DNA of 41,016 bases from Methanobrevibacter sp. (GTDB lineage: Archaea; Methanobacteriota; Methanobacteria; Methanobacteriales; Methanobacteriaceae): assembly GCF_015062935.1 (NCBI RefSeq), contig NZ_SUTM01000014.1:1-41016 (forward strand), read 5' to 3'. Positions 9,395-29,087 of the stretch are shown in pieces. The notes beneath the pieces are model-generated. The model made no database searches. It was not told where the DNA came from and saw only the letters and a list, made by a program, of their open reading frames with translations. Position 1 is the first letter of the stretch. The number at the start of each line of letters is the position of its first letter. Position numbers and translations under genes: made by a program.

Positions 9395-9429
9395 TAAAAA
9401 AATAAGAAAAATTAAAGAGCTACAGCTCT
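9395..9429 (-). terminator. Intrinsic-type terminator overlapping the acyl-CoA synthetase stop
   Basis: On the minus strand AGAGCT-GT-AGCTCT (9416-9429) is followed by TTAATTTTTCTTATTTTTTT. The TAG stop codon (9420-9422) lies within the hairpin. Confidence 0.6.
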
Positions 9430-11084
9430 CCATTTTCCCTGCGTTTTTCAAGAAGTTCCAGACCTAAATCGCCCAGTTTGTACTTCTGGATTTTACCACT
9501 TGTTGTAAGCGGGAACTCATCTACAAAGAAAACGTATTTCGGAACCTTATATCTTGCAATGGAACCTATACAGAAGTCACGTATGTCCGCTTCTGTAACG
9601 TCATCAAATCCTTCTTCCTTGATGATGAATGCTCCGACGATTTCACCGTATTTTTCATCCGGAATTCCTGCAACCTGAACGTCCTGAACACATTCGTGAG
9701 TGAATAGGAACTCTTCGATTTCACGAGGGTAGATGTTTTCCCCTCCTCTGATAATCATGTCCTTGATACGTCCGACGATTGAGTAGTAACCGTCTTCATC
9801 AACTGTTGCAAGGTCTCCTGAGTGAAGCCATCCGTCGGGCTCGATTGTCTCGGCGGTTTTCTCAGGCATGTTGTAGTATCCTTTCATTACGTTGAAACCT
9901 CTGCACATTATCTCTCCGGTTTCACCAGGTCCAAGTTCCTCTCCGGTTTCAGGATCTACAATCTTTACTTCAATATTCGGGAACTTGCGCCCTACGGTAT
10001 TGATTTTTTTCTCGAATGAATCGGAAGCATTTGTCTGTGTAAATCCTGGTGCAGCTTCTGTAAGGCCGTATACGCTTGTAATCTCTTTCATGTTCATCTT
10101 TTCGATTGCATCCTTCATTGTTTCAACAGGACATGTTGAACCTGCCATGATTCCAGTTCTAAGTGAGCTCATGTCAAACATCTCAAACATAGGATGGTTC
10201 ATCATTCCTATAAACATTGTAGGAACTCCGTAGATTGATGTACATTTTTCCTTCTGGATTGAGGAAATGGCTAAAAGAGGGTCATACTCTTCCAGCACAA
10301 CCATTGTGGAGCCGTGGGTTATGACTGCCATTACTCCTAAAACTGTACCGAAGCAGTGGAAAAGAGGTACCTGCAGTAATAATCTGTCATCAGGAGTGTA
10401 GTTCATGTTTTCTCCGATGTAGTAACCGTCGTTTACGATGTTACGGCTTGTAAGCATTACTCCTTTAGGGAATCCTTCTGTTCCTGATGTGTACTGCATG
10501 TTGATTACGTCATACTGTGAGACTGAATCCTTAATCTTCTGGTATTCATCGTCATCGTAGTTCATTCCTAATAAGATTAATTCATTTGTATTGTACATTC
10601 CCCTGTGCTTTTCCTGACCGACGTGGAAAATGAATTTCAGGCGAGGGAATTTCTCAGCAATAAGATGTCCTCTTGCACAGCTTTTAAGTTCCGGTACAAG
10701 TTCGTTTATAATGTCAAAGTAGCTTGTGTCCCTGAAGCCGTCGGTCATTGCCAGTGCCTTCATGTCTGACTGTTTTAGAACGTATTCAAGTTCGTGTGAC
10801 TGGTATGCTGTGTTTACTGTTACGATTGTTGCACCTATTTTTGCTGTTGCAAACATGTATGTCAGCCATTCCGGAACGTTTTTTGCCCAGATTCCAACGT
10901 GGTCTCCTTTTTCAATTCCTATAGCTAGCATTCCTTTTGCAAGATTGTCTATTCTTTCATCAAATTCCTTGTATGTAAATCTTAAGTTTCTGTCTGGATA
11001 AACGATAAATTCATGATCTGGCTGTTTTTCAACCATTGATTCGAAAAATTTTCCTAGCGGTAATTCTGTAAATAGTTCACTCAT
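9420..11084 (-). CDS. AMP-forming acyl-CoA synthetase (fatty-acid or acetate-type)
   Basis: A 554-residue ANL-superfamily ligase, normal length for the family. It would activate a carboxylic acid with ATP to an acyl-adenylate and then form the CoA thioester in the cytoplasm. The ATP/phosphate loop is [13 protein letters not shown], near residues 196-208. The adenine motif is VYGLTEAAP, and [17 protein letters not shown] with [16 protein letters not shown] form the hinge and A8 region. The catalytic lysine is in TTSGKIQK near the C-terminus. The start is ATG at 11084 behind GGAGGAG with 6-7 nt spacing. It lies 159 bp downstream of the HTH-cupin regulator on the same strand, and that regulator probably controls it. 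Sequence alone cannot decide between medium-chain, long-chain or branched acids as substrate. Methanogens lack beta-oxidation, so lipid remodelling or scavenging of rumen acids are the likelier roles. Confidence 0.93.
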
Positions 11085-11243: not shown

Positions 11244-11816
11244 TTAGTATGGAGTGTAGAGTACTGCTAATATTTTAGCCTTGTCGTTTCCGCTTGCGTG
11301 AAGGTGGTGTGGCACTACTGAATCGTAAAAGATAGTGTCTCCTTTACCTATTGTGAATGTGTCCTTTCCGTAAATTACTTCTATTTCTCCTTCAAGTACA
11401 TAGATGAACTCTTCGCCTTCGTGGGATGAAAGTTCCTTTTCGCCTTCTTCATAGTCAATGTCGATTATGAAAGGATCTATGTTTCTGTCTATTTTTCCCG
11501 CACCTAGGGAGTGGAACTCAAGATTTGTTGCGTTGGTTACGTCTTCACGTCCTGAAAAGTAAAGTGAGTTTTCGGTTTTTCCGCCTCTTGTAACTACCGG
11601 TCCGAGTTCAGGTGTGTCGTCGAGAAATGTTCCTAAACGGACTCCTAAAGCCCTTGCCATTTTTGTTAATGGTGTAAGTGAAGGGATTACCTCACCGTTT
11701 TCCATTGCCTTGAGGACTTCAAGCTTTACTCCGCTTCTCTCGGAAAGCTCTTCGATTGTCATGTCTTGTCTTGCTCTTATGTCTTTAATCTTTTGTGCAA
11801 AGTCTTCGTTTGTCAT
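11244..11816 (-). CDS. XRE-type HTH transcriptional regulator with C-terminal cupin domain
   Basis: About 190 residues. An N-terminal helix-turn-helix (FAQKIKDIRARQDMTIEELSERSGV, recognition part LEVLKAMENGEVIPSL) is followed by a C-terminal cupin_2 fold. The cupin carries SSHEGEEFIYVLEGEIEVIYG, GKGDTIFYDSVVPHHLHA and AKILAVLYTP. Family knowledge: HTH-cupin proteins sense small molecules, often organic acids or amines, and regulate the neighbouring catabolic gene. Here that gene is the acyl-CoA synthetase just downstream, so an acid or acyl-CoA ligand is a reasonable inference. I prefer ATG at 11816, which has GAGTGA 5 nt upstream. An in-frame GTG at 11825 would add three residues but overlaps that site. 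A perfect dyad at 11842-11858 lies at the predicted transcription start, suggesting autoregulation. Confidence 0.9.
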   Translation of the reverse strand: MTNEDFAQKIKDIRARQDMTIEELSERSGVKLEVLKAMENGEVIPSLTPLTKMARALGVRLGTFLDDTPELGPVVTRGGKTENSLYFSGREDVTNATNLEFHSLGAGKIDRNIDPFIIDIDYEEGEKELSSHEGEEFIYVLEGEIEVIYGKDTFTIGKGDTIFYDSVVPHHLHASGNDKAKILAVLYTPY

Positions 11817-11841
11817 ATATTTCACTCATTTTTGGATTGTT

Positions 11842-12703: not shown

Positions 12704-13513
12704 TTATCTGTTAAAGCATTCATCCCAAAGCTTTTTGTCATCATCGTCCAGGGCGAATATTGAATTTGCCTTTTCGAAAAATTTTACTGCATCAGCGTAT
12801 TTTTCCATGTCATAATATGTTAATGCAATTCCTCTGAATGCTTCAAATGAACCGTCATCAACCTTCAATACAGAGTTATAGACATTTATTGCATCTTCAA
12901 AGTCCCCGTTTAGCCTGTTTGCATCTGCAATTTCCAGTCTAACATCAAGATTATCCTCATCCAATGCAAGGCATGTTATGAACTCCTCAATAGCTTCATC
13001 ATAACTTTTGAGATTTACAAGAGCTTTTCCCTTAAGCAGATATGCCTTTGGATTTAATCTGTTCACTTCAATTGCCTTGTTACATAACAGAATGACCCTG
13101 CTGTTTACTGTCTGCCTGGATGTATGTTCATTTACAGAATCTGCCCTTTTCAGTTTTCTTTCAGCCCTTCTTACATAATCAGCATCCATGTTCAATGCAA
13201 CTTTGGCATTCAGAGAAGGTTCGCTTATGAAATTCGGAACATCCTCACCGCTGATGACTTCGTCCTTGAATTCGGAAATGTCACATAAAACATCGTCTAT
13301 CTGGTCAATGGCTCCTTCACTGAATTCCTCCAAATCCATCTCTTCAATTCGCTCTTTAAATTCGTCACTATCCAATTCCTTTAACACCACATCAGCTTCC
13401 TGCTTTAAAAAGTCAATGCTGTCTGAAATGTTTTGAAGAAATGTGGATTCAAAATAAACCTTTTGAGAGCTTTTTCTTGAAACCTTAATATCTTCCCAAT
13501 CCTTTTTCATCAT
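12704..13513 (-). CDS. TPR-repeat protein
   Basis: A 269-residue cytoplasmic protein with no signal peptide or membrane segment. Residues 1-100 are acidic and helical (FLKQEADVVLKELDSDEF, DQIDDVLCDISEFKDEV). From about residue 145 there are TPR units: NPKAYLLKGKALVNLKSYDEAIEEF, the one ending GDFEDAINVYNSVLKVD, and SFEAFRGIALTYYDMEKYADAVKFFEKA. TPRs are protein-interaction scaffolds. The gene follows the second DUF4062-like gene by 64 bp on the same strand, and that gap holds a TATA-like ATTTATATAC. The link is suggestive because TPRs and this N-terminal domain occur together in NPHP3-like STAND proteins. Two adjacent ATGs are possible (13513 and 13510); GGAGAGG upstream fits the second slightly better. 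Confidence 0.85.
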   Translation of the reverse strand: MMKKDWEDIKVSRKSSQKVYFESTFLQNISDSIDFLKQEADVVLKELDSDEFKERIEEMDLEEFSEGAIDQIDDVLCDISEFKDEVISGEDVPNFISEPSLNAKVALNMDADYVRRAERKLKRADSVNEHTSRQTVNSRVILLCNKAIEVNRLNPKAYLLKGKALVNLKSYDEAIEEFITCLALDEDNLDVRLEIADANRLNGDFEDAINVYNSVLKVDDGSFEAFRGIALTYYDMEKYADAVKFFEKANSIFALDDDDKKLWDECFNR

Positions 13514-13577
13514 ACCTCTCCGTGTAATGATTGAAAGATATTATTTAAAAAAAAGTATATAAATATTTTCAAATGAG

Positions 13578-14438
13578 CTATTCGCAGAAATTCTCAGGAT
13601 ATTCCTTTTTGAGCCCCTCAATGATATCTGCTATAAGAATTTCCTTTAAAGGCTTGTTTTCATATTCAAAACCGTCAAGACATCCGTTATAATCATAGCA
13701 CATGTTCTTTTCATGGGTCTTTATGAACATGCTCAGGTCCATATTGGTCAGCCTGGAGTACTCTTCAGCATATTTTAAAAATACCTCATGCATATCAAGG
13801 TCCCTGTTCCAGAATCCCTGATAATATCTTATCCTGATATCTGCATCATCTTTTTTATCGAAATCCCTTTTTACTTCAAAAATCAGATCTTTTGCCTTTG
13901 CAATTTCCAGATCATGGACACTTCTGTTGTCTTCATCACACATATTTGTGAAAAACATCTTCTGGGTTTTTGACAAATCATCTGAAAAGTCAAAATCTCT
14001 AAAGTAGAACAGTGCATGCTTTACAGGACCCAGTTCAATTGGCTTGTCATTTTCGAATTTGGCAAATGGATGCAGGGCATGCATTATTGACAGTTCGGTT
14101 ATTGAAACGTTTCCAACATAGTCTACAAGCTCAGGATACTCATCTATTGTCAGCCCGTTGACGTTCATATGGTCCGGCTTCCATCCTAGCTTATGGCCCC
14201 TGAAGCATATGAAGAATGTCCTGTCGAAATCGATTGATCTGAAATCATCAAGGATTATGCTTTTGTCTGAGTAATCGTTAAGCAATGAAAAGGCAACATC
14301 CCTGTAATATAGATGAATATCATGCTTTGCGCAGTATTCCTTTAGATAAGGAAAGACCTCTTTTATGAAATAGTAATATTCTCCGAACATATCATAGAAT
14401 GTACTTGTTATCATCAGTGTTACATGTTGTGTTGCCAT
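13578..14438 (-). CDS. Stand-alone TEP1/NPHP3-N-like (DUF4062-type) domain protein, copy A
   Basis: A protein of 286 residues. The N-terminal segment matches, by recognition, the domain that precedes the NACHT/AAA module in TEP1, NPHP3 and NWD proteins and in bacterial DUF4062 proteins. It has MITSTFYDMFGE (residues 9-20), FIKEVFPYLKEYC (24-36), LYYRDVAF (43-50), DRTFFICFRGHKLGW (72-86), YVGNVSITELSIMHAL (107-122) and ALFYFRD (142-148). No Walker A or B motif follows; the rest is charged and helical (KAKDLIFEVKRDF). The eukaryotic and bacterial relatives are usually fused to an NTPase, so a separate protein is unusual. The domain is considered TIR-like in fold, but whether it has catalytic or ligand-binding function here is unknown. 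The start is ATG at 14438 behind GGGGTAA. Copy B lies 280 bp upstream and the TPR gene 64 bp downstream. Confidence 0.75.
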   Translation of the reverse strand: MATQHVTLMITSTFYDMFGEYYYFIKEVFPYLKEYCAKHDIHLYYRDVAFSLLNDYSDKSIILDDFRSIDFDRTFFICFRGHKLGWKPDHMNVNGLTIDEYPELVDYVGNVSITELSIMHALHPFAKFENDKPIELGPVKHALFYFRDFDFSDDLSKTQKMFFTNMCDEDNRSVHDLEIAKAKDLIFEVKRDFDKKDDADIRIRYYQGFWNRDLDMHEVFLKYAEEYSRLTNMDLSMFIKTHEKNMCYDYNGCLDGFEYENKPLKEILIADIIEGLKKEYPENFCE

Positions 14439-14718
14439 AGTTTACCCCAGTTATATTTCTAAAATTTTTAGTATAAATAGTTTTAAAATGTTCAGAATAA
14501 TTGATGTTATAAAGAAAAATTTGAATATTTACAGAAAAAAATAGAATAAACTATATGTTCATAAAAAAATTTTAGAAAAATTAATCAGACCGCCCCTTTA
14601 ATTTTATAAAAAATAATAAACCATGTTAAAAAACTATTACATATAAAAAAAGTCAATGTAAAATAAACATCACACAAAAATATTGAAAAATTTTAAAAAA
14701 AATATAAAAATAATCGAA
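14439..14718. other. AT-rich spacer between the two DUF4062-like paralogues
   Basis: 280 bp of very AT-rich sequence with several TATA-like tracts and no open frame of note. It probably holds the terminator of copy B and the promoter of copy A, so the paralogues need not be co-transcribed. Confidence 0.5.
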
Positions 14719-15582
14719 TTATTTGAAATTCTCAGGAAATTCGATTTTCAGTTCATTTAAAATATCCTCATAAATCACATCACCCAGTGGCCTTCCTCCA
14801 AAAGCCAGCTCGGACAATGCGCCATCTGCATTTCTGCAGAGATACTCTTCATGAATTTCAATGAAATCATCCAATGGTCTTTTAACTATTTTGGAATACT
14901 CATCAACATAGTCCAGAAACATTTGAAAAGTGTTTAAATTTTCATCCCAAGTAGCATCATAATTTCTGATAATCATTCTGGAGGAATTTTCAGAGTTTTT
15001 ATCCAAATCATGTTTTGTTTCAAAAATCAGATCCTTGGCCTTTGCAACTTCCAAATCAAGTATTTCCTTAAGCTCGCCGTTGGATTTGTTAACATAAAAA
15101 TGTTTGACCTCACCTGACAAGTCTTTTTCATAGTCCGGCTTTCTGAAATAGAACAGGGAATGTTTGGCAGGTTTTATGTCACATTTTTCGCCGTCAACAT
15201 ATCGGTCAAATGGTGTTAAAGCATGCATGATTGCAAGTTCAGTGATGGAAACGTTTCCAATGTAGCCCACAAGTTCAGGATACTCATCTATTGTAAATCC
15301 GTTGATGTTTGTATGCTTTGGTCTCCATCCAAGTTTCTGACCTCTGAAGCATATGAAAAATGTCCTGTCCATATCAATGAATCTGAAATCCTGAAGCAGA
15401 ATGCCCTTATCTGCTTCATTTCTAGGCACTGAAAAAGCTACATCACGGTAATTTATCTCAATATCATATTTTTGACATTCCTCTTTTAATCTTGGATAGA
15501 CTTCCTCAATAAAGCATCTGTATTCAGCCATCATATCATAAAAGGTACTATTAATCATCAGGGTTACAGTTTTAGCTACCAT
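14719..15582 (-). CDS. Stand-alone TEP1/NPHP3-N-like (DUF4062-type) domain protein, copy B
   Basis: A 287-residue paralogue of copy A, roughly half identical and collinear throughout. It has MINSTFYDMMAE, FIEEVYPRLKEEC, INYRDVAF, DRTFFICFRGQKLGW, YIGNVSITELAIMHAL and SLFYFRK. The C-terminal half is more diverged (EVAKAKDLIFETKHDLDKN, then FPENFK at the end). The conserved residues of the N-terminal half (S-T-F-Y-D-M, R-D-V, D-R-T-F-F, G-W, T-E-L) are kept in both copies, while linkers and the C-terminal third differ. That pattern suggests two preserved proteins rather than one decaying copy. The start is ATG at 15582 with a weak GTGAG upstream. The gene lies 226 bp from the DUF3344 gene and probably has its own promoter. 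No partner NTPase is visible in the window. Confidence 0.75.
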   Translation of the reverse strand: MVAKTVTLMINSTFYDMMAEYRCFIEEVYPRLKEECQKYDIEINYRDVAFSVPRNEADKGILLQDFRFIDMDRTFFICFRGQKLGWRPKHTNINGFTIDEYPELVGYIGNVSITELAIMHALTPFDRYVDGEKCDIKPAKHSLFYFRKPDYEKDLSGEVKHFYVNKSNGELKEILDLEVAKAKDLIFETKHDLDKNSENSSRMIIRNYDATWDENLNTFQMFLDYVDEYSKIVKRPLDDFIEIHEEYLCRNADGALSELAFGGRPLGDVIYEDILNELKIEFPENFK

Positions 15583-15777: not shown

Positions 15778-15816
15778 AAAATAAAAAAAGAAAAATAGGA
15801 AGTGAATCCTATTTTT
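15778..15816 (-). terminator. Terminator overlapping the DUF3344 gene stop
   Basis: AAAAATAGGA (15791-15800), loop AGTGAA, TCCTATTTTT (15807-15816) form a perfect 10-bp stem. On the minus strand it is followed by a T-rich tract (CTTTTTTTATTTT). The TAG stop (15809-15811) is inside the stem. Confidence 0.7.
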
Positions 15817-18385
15817 TAATTGTTATAACACTTTTTGCACTGATGACATATTTGGAATTTCCGGAAGAAACTACAACTTTATGCTTACCGACTTTTAAAG
15901 ATTTGGTGTTGAGTTTGGCTAAACCTTTAGAGCTGGTTTTTACAGTATATGTTTTGAATTTCTTGCCTGTGTAGACTTTAACTTTTATCTTAATGTTTTT
16001 GACTACTTTTTTGGTTGCTTTATTTTTAACAGTAACTTTAAAATATTTGGATTTTTTAACTTTTGCAGTAACTTTTGGAGCTGAAACAGTGGTTTTAGCT
16101 TTATCTACCTTAATTGAAGATGTAGTCTTTTTGACATTATAATCTGTACTTGAAGATGTAATTTCCACCTTATGAGTTCCAATAGCCAATTTTGAAGCAA
16201 GAGTGAATGTTGCAACACCATTAGATTTTGTGACTACAGAATATGTTTTGGATGATTTTCCTGTGAAAACTTTTAAATTAAGTTTCAAACCTTCCACAGC
16301 ATTTCCGTCTTCATCTTTAACAGCGATTGTGAACGCTTTTCCTGAATCATAAGTTGTAGACAATATTTTTGGTGTTAAAGTTGTATCAAGAGAAAGTTTC
16401 TGGCTTACTGCAAATACCTGTTGTAAAGCCAGGATTGTAGAACCTGTTGCTACAAATGAAACGTTGTTTTTTGAATTTAACTGAATAACATTAGCATTGA
16501 ATATCTCAACAGAGTTCGAAGATCCATTCCATACATTTTCTACAACTTCACCATTGAAAATTATATTACCTTCACCAGCTTGTGCACTTGCTGCAAAGAC
16601 AAGCAAATTAGCTTTGACCAATTTTTTAGAACCAAATTCAACATTCAATAATGCATCAGTGCTAACCGCTCTGCTTGCTTTATTATAACTACTTGCAGAC
16701 AATAAGTCCGCACCATTTCCAATGAATATTGTTGTTAATGTATCACTGCCGGTCATATTTGTCATATATATTAAAGTACTTGGATAAACAGCAGTCAAAC
16801 CAGGTTCCTTGTTTATTATAAAAGTATTGTTGCCTTCTTTAACAAGGCTTGATACATCATAGACAAATAAACCGTAACCGTATTTTCCATAGGTACCTAA
16901 ATTGGACTGATCCCTATAATGAGCTTTAGGACTTACTGATACTCCATTAAAAGTAGTGTTGAAAACAGGACCTGATGCACCAGATTTATCCCAGTTATAA
17001 GCAACATAGATTAATGCATTTACAAATTGGGAGTTTTCACCAATTGTAATTTCCCAGACATCACTTCTGTTTGTTTTAGCTGCAGACATGTAGGTTGAAT
17101 CGCTGAGTGTTTCAGCCTCCATTTTTCCAGTAATTCTGTAAATTTCACTATCTTCAATATAGCTTGCATTGTATGCAAAATCCTTGCCCAAATTACCATT
17201 GTAGAGAACAGGCACTGTTTTATTAGCTTGAGCCACTACATTTTCGCCATATTTTAAATCAACTGCATAAAGCACTTTAGTATTGTTTGCACCATTTACA
17301 GTTGTCTCATCAACAGGCCTGACAGTCTGGTCAGTCAATAACAATGTAGCTGCACCGTCGACATCAATTTCTGTGCTGTTGACTAAAACACCATCAGCAA
17401 ATAATTCAATTGTGTATCTGCCTGCCTTATTGGAATTTACATTAACTGTTATTGTATTATTTGTTCCTGCATAACATGTGTTTGTATATTCTGTTGCTAA
17501 AGATACATCAGCCTGTATTGAAAATGTTTTTAATAATGACAATACATTTTTGACTGAACCGTATGCGCTTGTTCCGGCATACATTGATAAAAATTCAGTA
17601 TCTTCACCTTTATTTAAATCACCGGTCACATCCCAGCTGTTATATTGATAGTAGTCGCCGGAAGTATGATTTTTTGCATCACCCAAAATGACCTCATTGA
17701 CTTTATAACTTCCGTCACCGCTTGAAAGCATGATATTGTATAATTCAGCACTGTCTATATTATTTGCATCTTTTGTTGCAAATGTTGTTGAAATATTGGT
17801 TTTTGACCATCTTTGAGTAGAATCCACCCAATAATTAATTACATCTGAATCTCCATCATCATATGCAAGAATCAATGCGATTAATTTGATTCTGCCGTCA
17901 AAGGTCTTGTTGTCCATTTTAAATGTGTCTACCTTAAGAGTTATTGCAGATCCGTTCAAACCTTTTACTGAATCGGTAATGTCATAATACATCTGATAGT
18001 CAGAGTAACATTTTGTTGTGTGGTCGTTTACTGGATAGACAGTTCCGTCACTGCTGCCGTCTTCAATCCATAACTCTTCACTGGCTATTTGTTTTTCTCC
18101 GTCTACTGTTTTTATACTAACATTTGCATTTGCTCCATGAGTATTTTTAGCACTTCCACCGTACACGTTTACATAAACGTTGACACTTTTGATATTCTGT
18201 GCGTCTGCAGGGATGTCATAGTTAAGCTCACCGCTTGTAGACCAAGGGTTTACAGAAGCCAAATCAACATCTCCTGAAACTTCACCAGAAATACCCTCCT
18301 GTGGATTGTCAGCACTTACTGCACTAAGAGAAATTACAATCATGAAAAGCAAAGCAAAAATAAAAATTAATGATTTCCGTTTCAT
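15809..18385 (-). CDS. DUF3344 surface protein with C-terminal Ig-like repeats
   Basis: 858 residues. It has a signal peptide (KSLIFIFALLFMIVISLSAVSA) and two DUF3344-like modules. The first is about residues 30-290 (YDIPADAQNIKSVNVYVNVYG, then DSDVINYWVDSTQRW). The second is about 400-660 (FVNALIYVAYNWDKSGASG, then HYRDQSNLGTYGKYGYGLF). A CARDB-like Ig module lies between them (NNTITVNVNSNKAGRYTIELF). The C-terminus holds two Ig-like wall-associated repeats rich in Lys and Thr (about 670-858), of the kind that ends many Methanobrevibacter adhesin-like proteins. DUF3344 is typical of methanogen surface proteins and has no known activity. The gene starts 250 bp downstream of the CobN/ExbB/DUF2149 operon and shares an identical TATA-region 12-mer and AAAAGTAWTACT motifs with that operon's promoter. 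It may therefore be its co-regulated surface partner (inference). Confidence 0.9.
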   Translation of the reverse strand: MKRKSLIFIFALLFMIVISLSAVSADNPQEGISGEVSGDVDLASVNPWSTSGELNYDIPADAQNIKSVNVYVNVYGGSAKNTHGANANVSIKTVDGEKQIASEELWIEDGSSDGTVYPVNDHTTKCYSDYQMYYDITDSVKGLNGSAITLKVDTFKMDNKTFDGRIKLIALILAYDDGDSDVINYWVDSTQRWSKTNISTTFATKDANNIDSAELYNIMLSSGDGSYKVNEVILGDAKNHTSGDYYQYNSWDVTGDLNKGEDTEFLSMYAGTSAYGSVKNVLSLLKTFSIQADVSLATEYTNTCYAGTNNTITVNVNSNKAGRYTIELFADGVLVNSTEIDVDGAATLLLTDQTVRPVDETTVNGANNTKVLYAVDLKYGENVVAQANKTVPVLYNGNLGKDFAYNASYIEDSEIYRITGKMEAETLSDSTYMSAAKTNRSDVWEITIGENSQFVNALIYVAYNWDKSGASGPVFNTTFNGVSVSPKAHYRDQSNLGTYGKYGYGLFVYDVSSLVKEGNNTFIINKEPGLTAVYPSTLIYMTNMTGSDTLTTIFIGNGADLLSASSYNKASRAVSTDALLNVEFGSKKLVKANLLVFAASAQAGEGNIIFNGEVVENVWNGSSNSVEIFNANVIQLNSKNNVSFVATGSTILALQQVFAVSQKLSLDTTLTPKILSTTYDSGKAFTIAVKDEDGNAVEGLKLNLKVFTGKSSKTYSVVTKSNGVATFTLASKLAIGTHKVEITSSSTDYNVKKTTSSIKVDKAKTTVSAPKVTAKVKKSKYFKVTVKNKATKKVVKNIKIKVKVYTGKKFKTYTVKTSSKGLAKLNTKSLKVGKHKVVVSSGNSKYVISAKSVITIKK

Positions 18386-25640: not shown

Positions 25641-25670
25641 TAAAAAATTAATAAAAAAAGTAATACTTTT
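25641..25670 (-). terminator. AAAAGTA-N-TACTTTT dyad after the MATE stop (terminator and/or operator)
   Basis: On the minus strand AAAAGTATTACTTTT (25656-25670) abuts the MATE stop codon and is followed by a T-rich tract (TTTATTAATTTTTTAG). It is the same 15-mer found after the DUF2149 gene. Confidence 0.5.
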
Positions 25671-27037
25671 TAAGAATTCAAACAGGAATATTTGAATTTA
25701 ATGTTGAAAATCCAGATGAAGACAAAACCTATTAAAGAGCCTATGTTCATCCCCACAATTGCACCCAGATACACTCCGAAAACTCCCATATCCAAAACGA
25801 TGCCCATAAGGTATGCCAAAGCCATGCTCAATATTAATTCGCGAAAAACAGTCAAACCCAATGACTTGAATCCTGAACCGACACCCTGATATGTGTATGC
25901 TGCAGTAGCTCCGAAAGGAATCAGAACGTTATAGAAAACCAGAAGCCTGAGTATTTCAGCTGAACGGTTTACCAGATTCAAATCATTTGCCTGGAAATTG
26001 AAGGCTCCGCATAATGGATATGCGAAAATGAAAAATACTGCACATATCCCAACCGTTATTGCCAGACCCAATAATGTTGAATACTTTATGGTTTCATTGA
26101 AGTTCCGCCAGTTTCTGGCTCCATAGGCCACACCTGAAACGGTTATTGTAGCAATGCCTATTGCCATGCAAGGCAGGAATGCAATGGATATGAATCTCCA
26201 TGCAATTGTAAATGAGGCAACTTCACCGACCCCTGCTGTCACGATTATGAGGAAATTCAAGATAATCGCCACAAGGGCAAAGATTACCTCCTCCAATGCG
26301 GCAGGAAGTGAAACGACCAGAATATTTTTATATATTTCAAATCTGCGCCTGTAATATGAAAGATTGAATTTGAAAAATGTGTCCTTTTTAACGAAAATCC
26401 AGTAAAGCATCCACATCCATCCGATGAATGAGGAGACAACTGTTGCAAGCCCCGCACCGAAAATTCCCATATCCGCACCGTAAATGAGAACAGGATCAAG
26501 AATCATATTTAGAACTGCTGTCAATATTAACGGATTTGTTGCACGGCCGACATCACCTTCACCTCTGAATATGCTTGCTGTCACATTAGGTGCCAGAAAC
26601 ACTATATTCAGCAAAAATATCACACCGCCATAGCTTAGGCAATATGACTTGACTGATGAAGCCCCAAGAAGAACTACCAAATCATCCAAAAAGAATGTCC
26701 CTACAAGCAAAACTATGACTGACACCAAAAGCATAAGAATAATTGAATGGATAACTGCATTATTTGCATCTTCAAAACGTTCCGCACCGACATATCTTGA
26801 AATCAGGGAATTCGCTCCCGCACCAACACCGTTTCCAAGACCTATTATGACAAGATACAATGGTAAAATGAACCCCGAAGCGGCAAGGGCCTCTGCACTG
26901 ATTCCGGAAACCCAAAAACCGTCAATCAGGTTATTGAGAAACATCAAAAACATAGACAGGATGGTTGGAAAAGCAAGCCTGTTGATGGCTTTTCGGGGAT
27001 TTCCCATAATTGAATCAATGTTAGAATTATTTATCAT
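25670..27037 (-). CDS. MATE-family multidrug/cation efflux protein
   Basis: About 455 residues and twelve membrane helices, the family's usual size. An N-terminal IMGNPRKAINRLAFPTILSMF leads to the first helix. Typical MATE features include LIDGFWVSGISAEALAASGF, GVGAGANSLISRYVGA and FRGEGDVGRATNPLILTAVLNMILDPVLI. The second half repeats the pattern (AALEEVIFALVAIILNFLI, GVAYGARNW). MATE proteins export organic cations or drugs by Na+ or H+ antiport; the substrate cannot be read here. I choose ATG at 27037; the in-frame TTG at 27040 has no better support and no clear Shine-Dalgarno is present. It is divergent from the flavodoxin gene with only about 48 bp between starts, so their promoters overlap. 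Confidence 0.93.
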   Translation of the reverse strand: MINNSNIDSIMGNPRKAINRLAFPTILSMFLMFLNNLIDGFWVSGISAEALAASGFILPLYLVIIGLGNGVGAGANSLISRYVGAERFEDANNAVIHSIILMLLVSVIVLLVGTFFLDDLVVLLGASSVKSYCLSYGGVIFLLNIVFLAPNVTASIFRGEGDVGRATNPLILTAVLNMILDPVLIYGADMGIFGAGLATVVSSFIGWMWMLYWIFVKKDTFFKFNLSYYRRRFEIYKNILVVSLPAALEEVIFALVAIILNFLIIVTAGVGEVASFTIAWRFISIAFLPCMAIGIATITVSGVAYGARNWRNFNETIKYSTLLGLAITVGICAVFFIFAYPLCGAFNFQANDLNLVNRSAEILRLLVFYNVLIPFGATAAYTYQGVGSGFKSLGLTVFRELILSMALAYLMGIVLDMGVFGVYLGAIVGMNIGSLIGFVFIWIFNIKFKYSCLNS

Positions 27038-27085
27038 CAATATTTATATTGTTTAATGTGCTAATTAAAATAATAAGGTGAAAAA

Positions 27086-27493
27086 ATGAAAATCGCAATT
27101 AGATACTACACAAAAACAGGAAATACAAAAAAGCTTGCAGAAGCAATTTCCAGTGTTGTAAACGTTGAAGCAAAAACAGTAGATGAACCTTTAACCGAAG
27201 ATGTGGACATTCTGTTTTTAGGAAGTGCAGTTTATGCAGCAGGAATTGACAAAAAAATAAAAGAGTTCATCCAAAACATTAACGTTAACGTGGGTGAAGT
27301 TGTAAACTTCTCATCAGCAGCTCTCATCGAGTCAACCTACAAACAGGTCAAAAAGGAAGTTGAAGCCAAGGGCCTTAAAATGAGCGAAAACGAATTCCAC
27401 TGCAGAGGAGCATTCAAGCTCGTCCACAGAGGACGTCCAAATGATGAGGATTTAAAAAACGTGAAAGAATTTGCAAAAAGAATAATTAATTAA
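27086..27493 (+). CDS. Small flavodoxin-like protein
   Basis: A protein of 135 residues. The FMN phosphate loop YTKTGNTKKLAEAI (residues 8-21) fits the T/S-x-T-G-N-T flavodoxin signature. DVDILFLGSAVYAAGIDKKIKEFI is the second FMN-contact region. It is slightly shorter than classical flavodoxins and resembles flavodoxin-like proteins with redox roles near detoxification genes. Shine-Dalgarno AAGGTGA is 6 nt before ATG. Its stop overlaps the stop of the opposite-strand channel gene (both within 27490-27493), so the two transcripts converge and overlap. The electron partner is unknown. Confidence 0.85.
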   Translation: MKIAIRYYTKTGNTKKLAEAISSVVNVEAKTVDEPLTEDVDILFLGSAVYAAGIDKKIKEFIQNINVNVGEVVNFSSAALIESTYKQVKKEVEAKGLKMSENEFHCRGAFKLVHRGRPNDEDLKNVKEFAKRIIN

Positions 27494-28308
27494 TTTTTCT
27501 TATTCTTTTTAATCAAATCTTCAATATGATCAAATCTCTTGTAGAGATTTCTTCTAACGATTGACACCGCCAGTGTAGCCGAACCGACACCAGACAGGAT
27601 AAAACCTGACCACACCAGAAACAGTGCATCCATCTTACCAATACCTGATGAACCTAAAACTGAATAACCGTTACTTGTAAAGGCATTGGAAACCATCACA
27701 ATTGAATCCAATGGTGAAACATTCTCAACAATAATTGTAAATAAAAAGCTGAACAGTACTATCAGATACAAAAGCATTATTGTTATTCCCAAACCGTTTG
27801 TCTGTGTATATTCCAGAAACTTCTGATAATAGACTTTTATCATATACAGATATGACAGACAGTGCAGCGAATCCAGGACATAGAATAACCTTGACCCGGC
27901 AGGATCTCCTCCGATCACTATAAAAAGTGAACCGAATGGAATCAAAAAGAAAAAGAGGAATTTTCTTTTAAGGTCATTTTTATCCATTTCATATGCAAGA
28001 TATACTGAAAAGATAATATCCATTGCTATAATAACATGTCTTCCGCTTTGCCACCCGAATATGGAGTAGAGAATAATGAATACAAAAATTATAATCATTA
28101 CCAGATAAAAAACCTGCTTAAGCGTATGTGCTTCCTCAACAGGCAGATATTCCTCAAGGTATAAGAATCTTGAAGATTTAATTTGGGAACTGTTTTTAAG
28201 TCTAGGCCATATAAATCTAACAGCGAAAAACATGGCAGTAAAAATTAAAATACAGACTAAAAAACTTATAATTAAACCTAAAATCATCATTGACTCATTC
28301 ATTACCAT
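27490..28308 (-). CDS. K+-channel-like membrane protein, paralogue 2
   Basis: A protein of 272 residues with several membrane helices (MMILGLIISFLVCILIFTAM, VFYLVMIIIFVFIILYS, ITIMLLYLIVLFSFLFTII). The C-terminal third looks like a two-helix pore module: pore helix and filter region SPLDSIVMVSNAFTSNGYSVLG, then inner helix KMDALFLVWSGFILSGVGSATLAVSIVRR, then a short charged tail. The canonical T-V-G-Y-G-D filter is replaced by T-S-N-G-Y-S. Ion selectivity is therefore uncertain, and it could be a non-selective channel or not a channel at all. Its start codon shares one base with the upstream paralogue's stop (TAATG), implying translational coupling. GGGGGTGA supplies the ribosome binding site. 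Confidence 0.6.
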   Translation of the reverse strand: MVMNESMMILGLIISFLVCILIFTAMFFAVRFIWPRLKNSSQIKSSRFLYLEEYLPVEEAHTLKQVFYLVMIIIFVFIILYSIFGWQSGRHVIIAMDIIFSVYLAYEMDKNDLKRKFLFFFLIPFGSLFIVIGGDPAGSRLFYVLDSLHCLSYLYMIKVYYQKFLEYTQTNGLGITIMLLYLIVLFSFLFTIIVENVSPLDSIVMVSNAFTSNGYSVLGSSGIGKMDALFLVWSGFILSGVGSATLAVSIVRRNLYKRFDHIEDLIKKNKKN

Positions 28309-29087
28309 TATTCTTCACCCCCATCTTCAAGAAGCCTTTCCAGCTCATCAAGCCGCCTGTTGAATTTTCTAACTAAAATTGCCGCCGTTAATGTAGCCGA
28401 ACCTGCACCTGATATGATATATCCTCCCCAGACCAGAAAAACACTGTTCAGTTTTCCTAAAGCAGATTGTCCTAAAACTACATAACCGTTACTTGTAAAA
28501 GCATTGGAAGCCATTACCAGGGCATCAAGAGGTCCCTTATTCTCAGCAAATTGGGTAACGAAAAAGCTGATGAAAATTATGGCAAATGTCAAAACAACTG
28601 TAACACCCAGACCGTTTGAAAATGTGTATTCCTGGAATTTTCCATAGTAATACTTGATGAAATAGATAAATATCAGGAAATGAACGAAATCTACCAAATA
28701 AGTTAAAGAAATACCATCGAAAAGTGCGTATGTCAAAGATCCGAAAGGCACTAAAAGCAACAGAATTATTTTATGCATCTTAGATGTTTCAAATGTAACA
28801 GCAATATACAGTGAAAGTAAAATATCAAATGCAATAAAATAAATCCAAGAGTTATCAAAGATGGATATGAAATAAAACAGATAAATGAAACATAAAGCCA
28901 TCAGTATGAGATAGAATACCTGTTTTAAGGTCTGCACTTCTTCAAGTGGAAGGAATTCTTCGGGATTGAGAAATCTGCTTGAACTGTTTTGAATAATATC
29001 ACGTATCTTCACACCGATAAAAACCAAAACAAAAAACAAAGCAATTACAACAACAAATTCCACAATAGAAGTTACAACTAAATCCAC
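28308..29087 (-). CDS. K+-channel-like membrane protein, paralogue 1
   Basis: 259 residues, collinear with the gene downstream. Shared features are SSRFLNPEEFLPLEEVQTLK before the second helix, the YYGKFQEYTFSNGLGVTVVL turn, and the pore-like segment GPLDALVMASNAFTSNGYVVLG followed by the inner helix NSVFLVWGGYIISGAGSATL. The filter-equivalent residues are again T-S-N-G-Y. Keeping two coupled, non-identical copies suggests a hetero-oligomer (inference). The start is GTG at 29087 with AGGTGA about 6 nt upstream. The gene is divergent from the esterase gene, and a perfect 8-2-8 palindrome lies in the shared spacer. Confidence 0.6.
   Translation of the reverse strand: MDLVVTSIVEFVVVIALFFVLVFIGVKIRDIIQNSSSRFLNPEEFLPLEEVQTLKQVFYLILMALCFIYLFYFISIFDNSWIYFIAFDILLSLYIAVTFETSKMHKIILLLLVPFGSLTYALFDGISLTYLVDFVHFLIFIYFIKYYYGKFQEYTFSNGLGVTVVLTFAIIFISFFVTQFAENKGPLDALVMASNAFTSNGYVVLGQSALGKLNSVFLVWGGYIISGAGSATLTAAILVRKFNRRLDELERLLEDGGEE

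What the first reader, a model, noticed from the sequence alone, without database searches (positions are those of the whole stretch)
12704..15582. Tandem stand-alone TEP1/NPHP3-N-like proteins next to a TPR protein: a STAND sensor without its NTPase
Both 286-287 residue proteins carry the domain that in TEP1, NPHP3, NWD and bacterial DUF4062 proteins precedes a NACHT/AAA motor (S-T-F-Y-D-M, R-D-V, D-R-T-F-F-I-C-F-R-G-x-K-L-G-W, T-E-L-x-I-M-H-A-L, F-Y-F-R). Here no Walker motifs follow. The next gene encodes TPRs, which are the usual other end of such STAND proteins. This looks like a split system: two N-domain proteins plus a TPR scaffold. Possible roles are defence, stress sensing or regulation of an NTPase encoded elsewhere. 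Seen: motifs, tandem copies, adjacency. Inferred: the system.
Basis: partly seen in the sequence, partly recalled or inferred. Interest (0 to 1): 0.75.

Follow-up and report, generated by a model that had tools for sequence, protein, structure and literature searches.

The report
Stand-alone, catalytically dead TIR-like proteins
Two neighbouring genes of a gut methane-making archaeon encode only the enzyme domain of an NAD-destroying immune protein family (the one in human TEP1), but with the catalytic glutamate gone; the genus has kept such genes at fixed places, as if the dead domain took on a new, perhaps regulatory, job.

Summary
In detail: two complete genes (A 14719-15582, B 13578-14438, both minus strand, 52% identical) encode only the module that precedes the NTPase in TEP1-type STAND proteins, and a TPR gene follows. 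The module is DUF4062, shown in a 2026 preprint (PMC13174449) to be a TIR-like NADase, so it is the effector end, not the sensor. Pfam misses A and B, but a profile of their relatives finds the TEP1 crystal structure (11gz) at E=6.8e-13. The new result: all 25 stand-alone copies lack the catalytic Glu, while 20 of 22 other relatives with a readable motif keep it. The stand-alones form one clade (100/100), are under purifying selection (dN/dS 0.04-0.15), were found only in this genus, and sit at a few fixed chromosomal sites. Glu-bearing DUF4062 genes are scattered over the species tree like mobile defence genes. The TPR gene is a common genus gene (47 of 67 genomes), usually elsewhere, and occurs at this same locus without the pair, so the split-STAND system is not supported. 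Most likely these are vertically inherited pseudo-NADases acting by binding, possibly restraining active DUF4062 proteins. That last step is inferred and weakly supported.

The parts
14719..15582 (-). Gene A: stand-alone DUF4062 (TIR-like) protein, 287 aa; Ala at the catalytic Glu position (A117)
   Evidence: AlphaFold2 pLDDT 85, pTM 0.87
13578..14438 (-). Gene B: paralogue of A, 286 aa, 52% identical; Ser at the catalytic Glu position
   Evidence: separate clade from A, shared with other species
15217..15252 (-). Codons 111-122 of A (VSITELAIMHAL), aligned to SVTEMEVMQFL of TEP1 and SATEMEIEHAL of the multi-domain relatives; codon 117 (15232-15234) is the lost catalytic Glu
   Evidence: TEP1 E1008 from PMC13174449
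12704..13513 (-). TPR-repeat protein, 269 aa; genus-wide gene, a neighbour rather than a component
11244..11825 (-). HTH-cupin regulator; with the AMP-ligase gene it marks the conserved site where A/B-type genes sit in other genomes
9420..11084 (-). AMP-binding ligase, second marker gene of the conserved site
15809..18385 (-). DUF3344 surface protein, upstream neighbour and other marker of the site

Best explanation
A and B belong to a family confined, as far as searched, to this Methanobrevibacter genus. Stand-alones form a single clade homologous to the N-terminal TIR-like NADase module (DUF4062) of DUF4062-NACHT-WD40 proteins. Shown here: the NTPase and WD40 parts are absent, the catalytic Glu and the RWG of the BB loop are lost, and the rest is kept under purifying selection at fixed chromosomal sites. 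Inferred: the proteins no longer hydrolyse NAD+ and work by binding. TIR-like domains act by assembling with each other, so the likeliest single mode is a soluble dead subunit that joins or caps assemblies of active DUF4062 proteins (three Glu-bearing ones are encoded elsewhere in this genome) and so restrains them, in the manner of CARD-only or pyrin-only proteins. I give the pseudo-enzyme part about 0.85 and the restraint of active DUF4062 proteins about 0.25-0.3. The TPR gene is a neighbour, not a component.
For: Homology: profile of stand-alones hits TEP1 TIR-like domain 11gz_A, E=6.8e-13, residues 5-178, and nothing else at E up to 10. Multi-domain relatives carry Pfam DUF4062, NPHP3_N/AAA and WD40. 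Lost Glu: 25 of 25 stand-alones have A/S/T/I/L/V/M where 20 of 22 other relatives have Glu. The column is TEP1 E1008: its three active-site Arg (R908, R954, R976) fit residues 15, 61 and 83 of the 11gz chain with offset 893, which puts E1008 at residue 115 (PMC13174449 reports loss of activity in E1008A). Also lost: R21 and R49-W50-G51, fixed in the multi-domain relatives. Constraint: dN/dS 0.04-0.15, including B against G020 (L039; 0.04) and A against G040 (0.12). One clade 100/100. Inheritance: 7 changes on an rpoA1 tree against 13.4 shuffled (0 of 500), while Pfam-detected DUF4062 needs 18 against 18.3. Fixed sites: HTH-cupin/AMP-ligase, M42 peptidase/TrmO, CobM. Active-type DUF4062 in the same genome: three proteins with motifs TEYEY or TELEY; the two scanned also carry HATPase_c_4. 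Co-occurrence with Pfam DUF4062 genes: 13 of 17 genomes with stand-alones against 18 of 50 without, p=0.005, not corrected for kinship.
Against: Binding to active DUF4062 was not tested. Four genomes with stand-alones (G011, G017, G028, G036; 81-94% complete) show no Pfam DUF4062 gene, so a strict dependence is unlikely. No stand-alone examined lies next to a Glu-bearing DUF4062 gene. Loss of NADase activity is inferred from one residue column plus the BB loop; the neighbouring Glu (E115) is kept, so another chemistry is not excluded. Foldseek gave no convincing PDB or viral match; 11gz may post-date that library, so the TIR-like fold rests on the sequence profile.
Confidence: 0.6

Rival explanations
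1. Exaptation: the dead TIR-like module has become a sensor, carrier or scaffold in ordinary cell physiology, for example binding NAD+, ADP-ribose or another nucleotide without cleaving it, and has nothing to do with defence or with other DUF4062 proteins.
For: Chromosomal, syntenic sites among housekeeping genes; lineage inheritance; kept in genomes with no detected DUF4062 gene; new residues fixed across the family (S51, D72, T74, R80, L84, L116).
Against: No partner gene recurs across all sites; no ligand evidence; several copies per genome with variable presence are less usual for a housekeeping gene.
Confidence: 0.35
2. Split STAND system: A and B as N-domain subunits, the TPR protein as scaffold, with an NTPase encoded elsewhere.
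For: B and the TPR gene are 64-67 bp apart in the window genome and in G040; all 17 genomes with a stand-alone also have the TPR gene, against 30 of 50 of the rest.
Against: TPR gene in 47 of 67 genomes, usually elsewhere; adjacent in only 4; same locus with TPR and no stand-alone in G042, G014 and G055; stand-alones at two other sites have no TPR neighbour. The co-occurrence is not corrected for lineage.
Confidence: 0.05
3. Still-active NAD-consuming enzymes with a relocated catalytic residue (E115 or the conserved H120/D47).
For: E115 and H120 are invariant in the aligned stand-alones; R976 of TEP1 is replaced mostly by Lys or Arg.
Against: E115 also exists in TEP1 and in the multi-domain relatives, where the other Glu is the tested catalytic one; the BB-loop RWG and R21 are gone too.
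Confidence: 0.1
4. Decaying remnants of STAND genes that lost their C-terminal parts.
For: One copy is split by an in-frame TAG (L046); one 285-aa DUF4062 gene elsewhere (L063) looks like a separate, Glu-bearing fragment.
Against: 24 intact copies of nearly equal length in 17 genomes, dN/dS 0.04-0.15, and orthologues at matching sites.
Confidence: 0.03

Closest known systems
TEP1 TIR-like domain (DUF4062; PDB 11gz; PMC13174449)
   Same: Homologous over residues 5-178 of the profile (E=6.8e-13); AlphaFold2 topology is compatible.
   Different: A and B lack catalytic E1008 and the BB-loop RWG, and are not followed by NACHT and WD40 domains.
DUF4062-NACHT-APAF1-helical-WD40 STAND proteins of Methanobrevibacter (e.g. 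L054, L055, L056)
   Same: Their N-terminal ~285 residues align end to end with A and B, 31-35% identity.
   Different: They keep the Glu and carry the motor and sensor parts; A and B end at the module boundary.
Swarozyc (KpSwz) antiphage DUF4062 NADase (PMC13174449)
   Same: Same domain family; the window genome has three short DUF4062 proteins with the Glu.
   Different: KpSwz needs E97 and an auxiliary portal-binding domain; A and B have neither, and no defence gene was recognised beside them.
CARD-only and pyrin-only proteins (PMC3775265)
   Same: Stand-alone copies of the interaction domain of NLR-type proteins, lineage-restricted and thought to compete with the full-length proteins. Analogy in working mode only.
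   Different: Unrelated fold; no interaction has been shown for A and B.

Membership tests
DUF4062 (PF13271) TIR-like family | Significant match to the Pfam model above its gathering score | tested here: not met
   No hit for A or B at E<=1; none of the 25 stand-alone places appears in a genus-wide PF13271 scan at E<=0.01
DUF4062 (PF13271) TIR-like family | Homology to a solved DUF4062 domain | tested here: met
   Profile of 20 stand-alones against PDB: 11gz_A TEP1, E=6.8e-13, the only chain at E<=10
DUF4062 (PF13271) TIR-like family | Catalytic Glu (TEP1 E1008, KpSwz E97) | tested here: not met
   25 of 25 stand-alones have A/S/T/I/L/V/M
DUF4062 (PF13271) TIR-like family | NAD+ hydrolysis | not testable with these tools
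   Needs purified protein
STAND NTPase (NACHT/AAA with N-domain and repeats) | P-loop NTPase in the same protein | tested here: not met
   No AAA/NACHT hit in A or B; full length is the N-module only
STAND NTPase (NACHT/AAA with N-domain and repeats) | Sensor repeats encoded in the same conserved unit (the TPR gene) | tested here: not met
   TPR gene in 47 of 67 genomes, adjacent to a stand-alone in 4; locus without stand-alones in G042, G014, G055
Swarozyc antiphage system | DUF4062 with catalytic Glu plus auxiliary sensing domain | tested here: not met
   No Glu, no auxiliary domain
Swarozyc antiphage system | Patchy distribution and defence-island setting | tested here: not met
   Lineage-clustered (7 changes against 13.4 shuffled); conserved sites among housekeeping genes; no PADLOC hit for A or B; flanks were not all scanned with PADLOC
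CARD-only/pyrin-only type regulators (working mode) | Binds and inhibits full-length relatives | not testable with these tools
   Only co-occurrence available: 13/17 against 18/50, p=0.005 uncorrected

The most novel reading that the evidence does not exclude
An archaeal counterpart of CARD-only/pyrin-only proteins: a vertically kept family of dead TIR-like NADase domains that co-assemble with horizontally arriving DUF4062 NADases and keep them from killing the cell, so that host lineages can tolerate these defence genes.
Probability: 0.2. Interest if true: 0.75.

Novelty: new variant of a known kind. Interest (0 to 1): 0.5.

Why it matters
DUF4062 was named a TIR-like NADase family only in 2026. 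A whole clade that lost the catalytic residue yet is strongly conserved, and that the Pfam model does not see, suggests the fold has a non-catalytic use in prokaryotes. If it restrains active NADases, it would be a built-in safety device against an abortive-infection effector. It might also bear on NWD1, NWD2 and NPHP3, which showed no NADase activity in the preprint's assays.

Tried and rejected
TPR partner: rejected on genus-wide occurrence and empty-site comparison. Recent tandem duplication: rejected, A and B fall in separate clades each shared with other species. Viral origin or viral decoy: no relative in viral contigs by the patterns used. Gene decay: rejected by dN/dS and synteny. The weak third match in the own genome (C13:33141, E=0.007) was not followed. 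Foldseek against PDB and BFVD gave nothing usable. An aEF-2 species tree was dropped because many genomes lack the standard copy; rpoA1 was used instead (quick method, 56 of 67 genomes). Remnants of stand-alones at empty sites: none found.

Full report
Observation. A and B are 52% identical. Alone they match no Pfam, NCBIfam or PADLOC family, so the resemblance could not have been confirmed by a simple domain scan.

Identity. A search of 67 genomes of the genus with A gave two kinds of relative: stand-alone frames of about 285-300 aa (38-70% identity) and the N-terminus of proteins of about 1400-1780 aa (31-35%). Most of the long ones examined carry DUF4062, an NPHP3_N/AAA NTPase and many WD40 repeats, the plan of human TEP1; one, of 843 aa, instead has TIR_2, a weak DUF4062 match and NACHT. 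A profile built from 20 stand-alones matches the crystal structure of the TEP1 DUF4062 domain, 11gz_A, at E=6.8e-13 and no other chain in the PDB at E up to 10. Homology is therefore secure. AlphaFold2 on a 20-sequence alignment gave pLDDT 85 and pTM 0.87 with alternating strands and helices. Foldseek against PDB and viral libraries gave no match at E<=0.001; the PDB library stops at 8 April 2026 and 11gz may be later.

What the domain does elsewhere. A May 2026 preprint (PMC13174449) shows that DUF4062 is a TIR-like NADase, an antiphage effector in bacteria (Swarozyc) and active in TEP1 in the vault; NADase activity depends on TEP1 E1008 and KpSwz E97. The N-domain is thus the effector of such STAND proteins; by analogy with APAF-1 the WD40 or TPR end is the sensor.

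The lost Glu. The preprint names R908, R954 and R976 in the TEP1 active site. Their spacing (46, 22) fits Arg 15, 61 and 83 of the 11gz chain, so E1008 is chain residue 115, the second Glu of SVTEMEV (my deduction from the printed alignment). In all 25 stand-alones this column holds A, S, T, I, L, V or M; in 20 of 22 other relatives of the taxonomic family with a readable motif it is Glu, the exceptions being the TIR_2-DUF4062-NACHT protein (G, L067) and a 495-aa protein (K, L069). The stand-alones also lost the Arg of AERD and the RWG of DLRWGV, but keep D16, E20, D47, R73, G85, E115, H141 and R147. The first Glu of the motif (E115) is kept, which leaves a small opening for other chemistry.

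Selection, history and place. dN/dS between close orthologues is 0.04-0.15, though dS is near saturation in many pairs. The stand-alones form one clade, 100/100, apart from all multi-domain relatives included; A and B belong to different sub-clades each with members in other species, so the duplication is old. Stand-alones of this kind were found only in this genus, among 152 genomes of the phylum and in the 84,980-species collection by the patterns used (19 loci, all Methanobrevibacter), and not in viral contigs. They occupy a few fixed sites: beside HTH-cupin and AMP-ligase (the window's site), between an M42-like peptidase and a TrmO-like gene (nine loci), and beside a CobM-like gene (three loci, one broken) (these last names are my reading of the sequences). 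On an rpoA1 tree of 56 genomes their presence needs 7 changes against 13.4 for shuffled labels (0 of 500 as low); Pfam-detected DUF4062 genes need 18 against 18.3. The stand-alones are inherited in lineages; the Glu-bearing genes come and go.

The TPR gene. It occurs in 47 of 67 genomes, nearly always once, often beside a MatE transporter and two genes that in the window lie about 12 kb away (25670-29087). It adjoins a stand-alone in only four genomes (G000, G040, G034, G011), in differing orders. G042, G014 and G055 have the same locus with the TPR gene and no stand-alone, without recognisable remnants. It is a neighbour.

Mechanism. Shown: a TIR-like module without catalytic Glu, without motor, conserved, inherited vertically. 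Inferred: no NADase activity, hence function by binding. The genome also encodes three short DUF4062 proteins with the Glu, at least two with HATPase_c_4. Genomes with stand-alones have DUF4062 genes more often (13 of 17 against 18 of 50, p=0.005, uncorrected for kinship), but four have none detected. I commit to a non-catalytic binding protein, and as the likeliest single role a restraint on active DUF4062 assemblies, by analogy with CARD-only and pyrin-only proteins (PMC3775265), at about 0.25-0.3; a role unrelated to DUF4062 is at least as likely in sum.

Novelty. The domain family and its NADase activity are known. In the papers searched I found no report of a stand-alone, Glu-less clade; the preprint's supplements were not open to me. 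I rate it a new variant of a known kind.

Noticed in passing
L055:3059-6493, L058:6828-10934, L060:3935-7483, L054:1184-3643, L056:8703-11216: The long DUF4062-NACHT-WD40 genes are often directly beside a gene for a beta-helix protein that lacks an obvious signal peptide (N-termini like MGFFDKFK); in three cases same strand, about 10-50 bp apart. Possible partner of the STAND protein.
   Followed up: partly
L063:7643-9844 and 9841-10698: A 733-aa RyR-domain gene overlaps by 4 nt a separate 285-aa DUF4062 gene that keeps the catalytic Glu: a different stand-alone, possibly a two-gene system.
   Followed up: partly
L067:764-3292: Protein with TIR_2, then a DUF4062 with Gly in place of the Glu, then NACHT: a dead DUF4062 combined with a canonical TIR.
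   Followed up: no
L069:9608-11095: 495-aa protein with a divergent DUF4062-like N-terminus and Lys at the Glu position, no Pfam hit.
   Followed up: no
L046:8965-9831 (G011:C4): One stand-alone copy is interrupted by an in-frame TAG; pseudogene or assembly error.
   Followed up: no
L089:2751-4004, L090:3533-4954, L091:3872-5272: Three DUF4062 proteins of 417-473 aa in the window's own genome with motifs TEYEY/TELEY; the two scanned also carry HATPase_c_4.
   Followed up: partly
rpoA1 regions of G004, G005, G016, G022, G027, G035 and others: RpoA1 reading frames of about 1000-1170 aa with a split profile match, as if carrying inteins, scattered across the genus.
   Followed up: no
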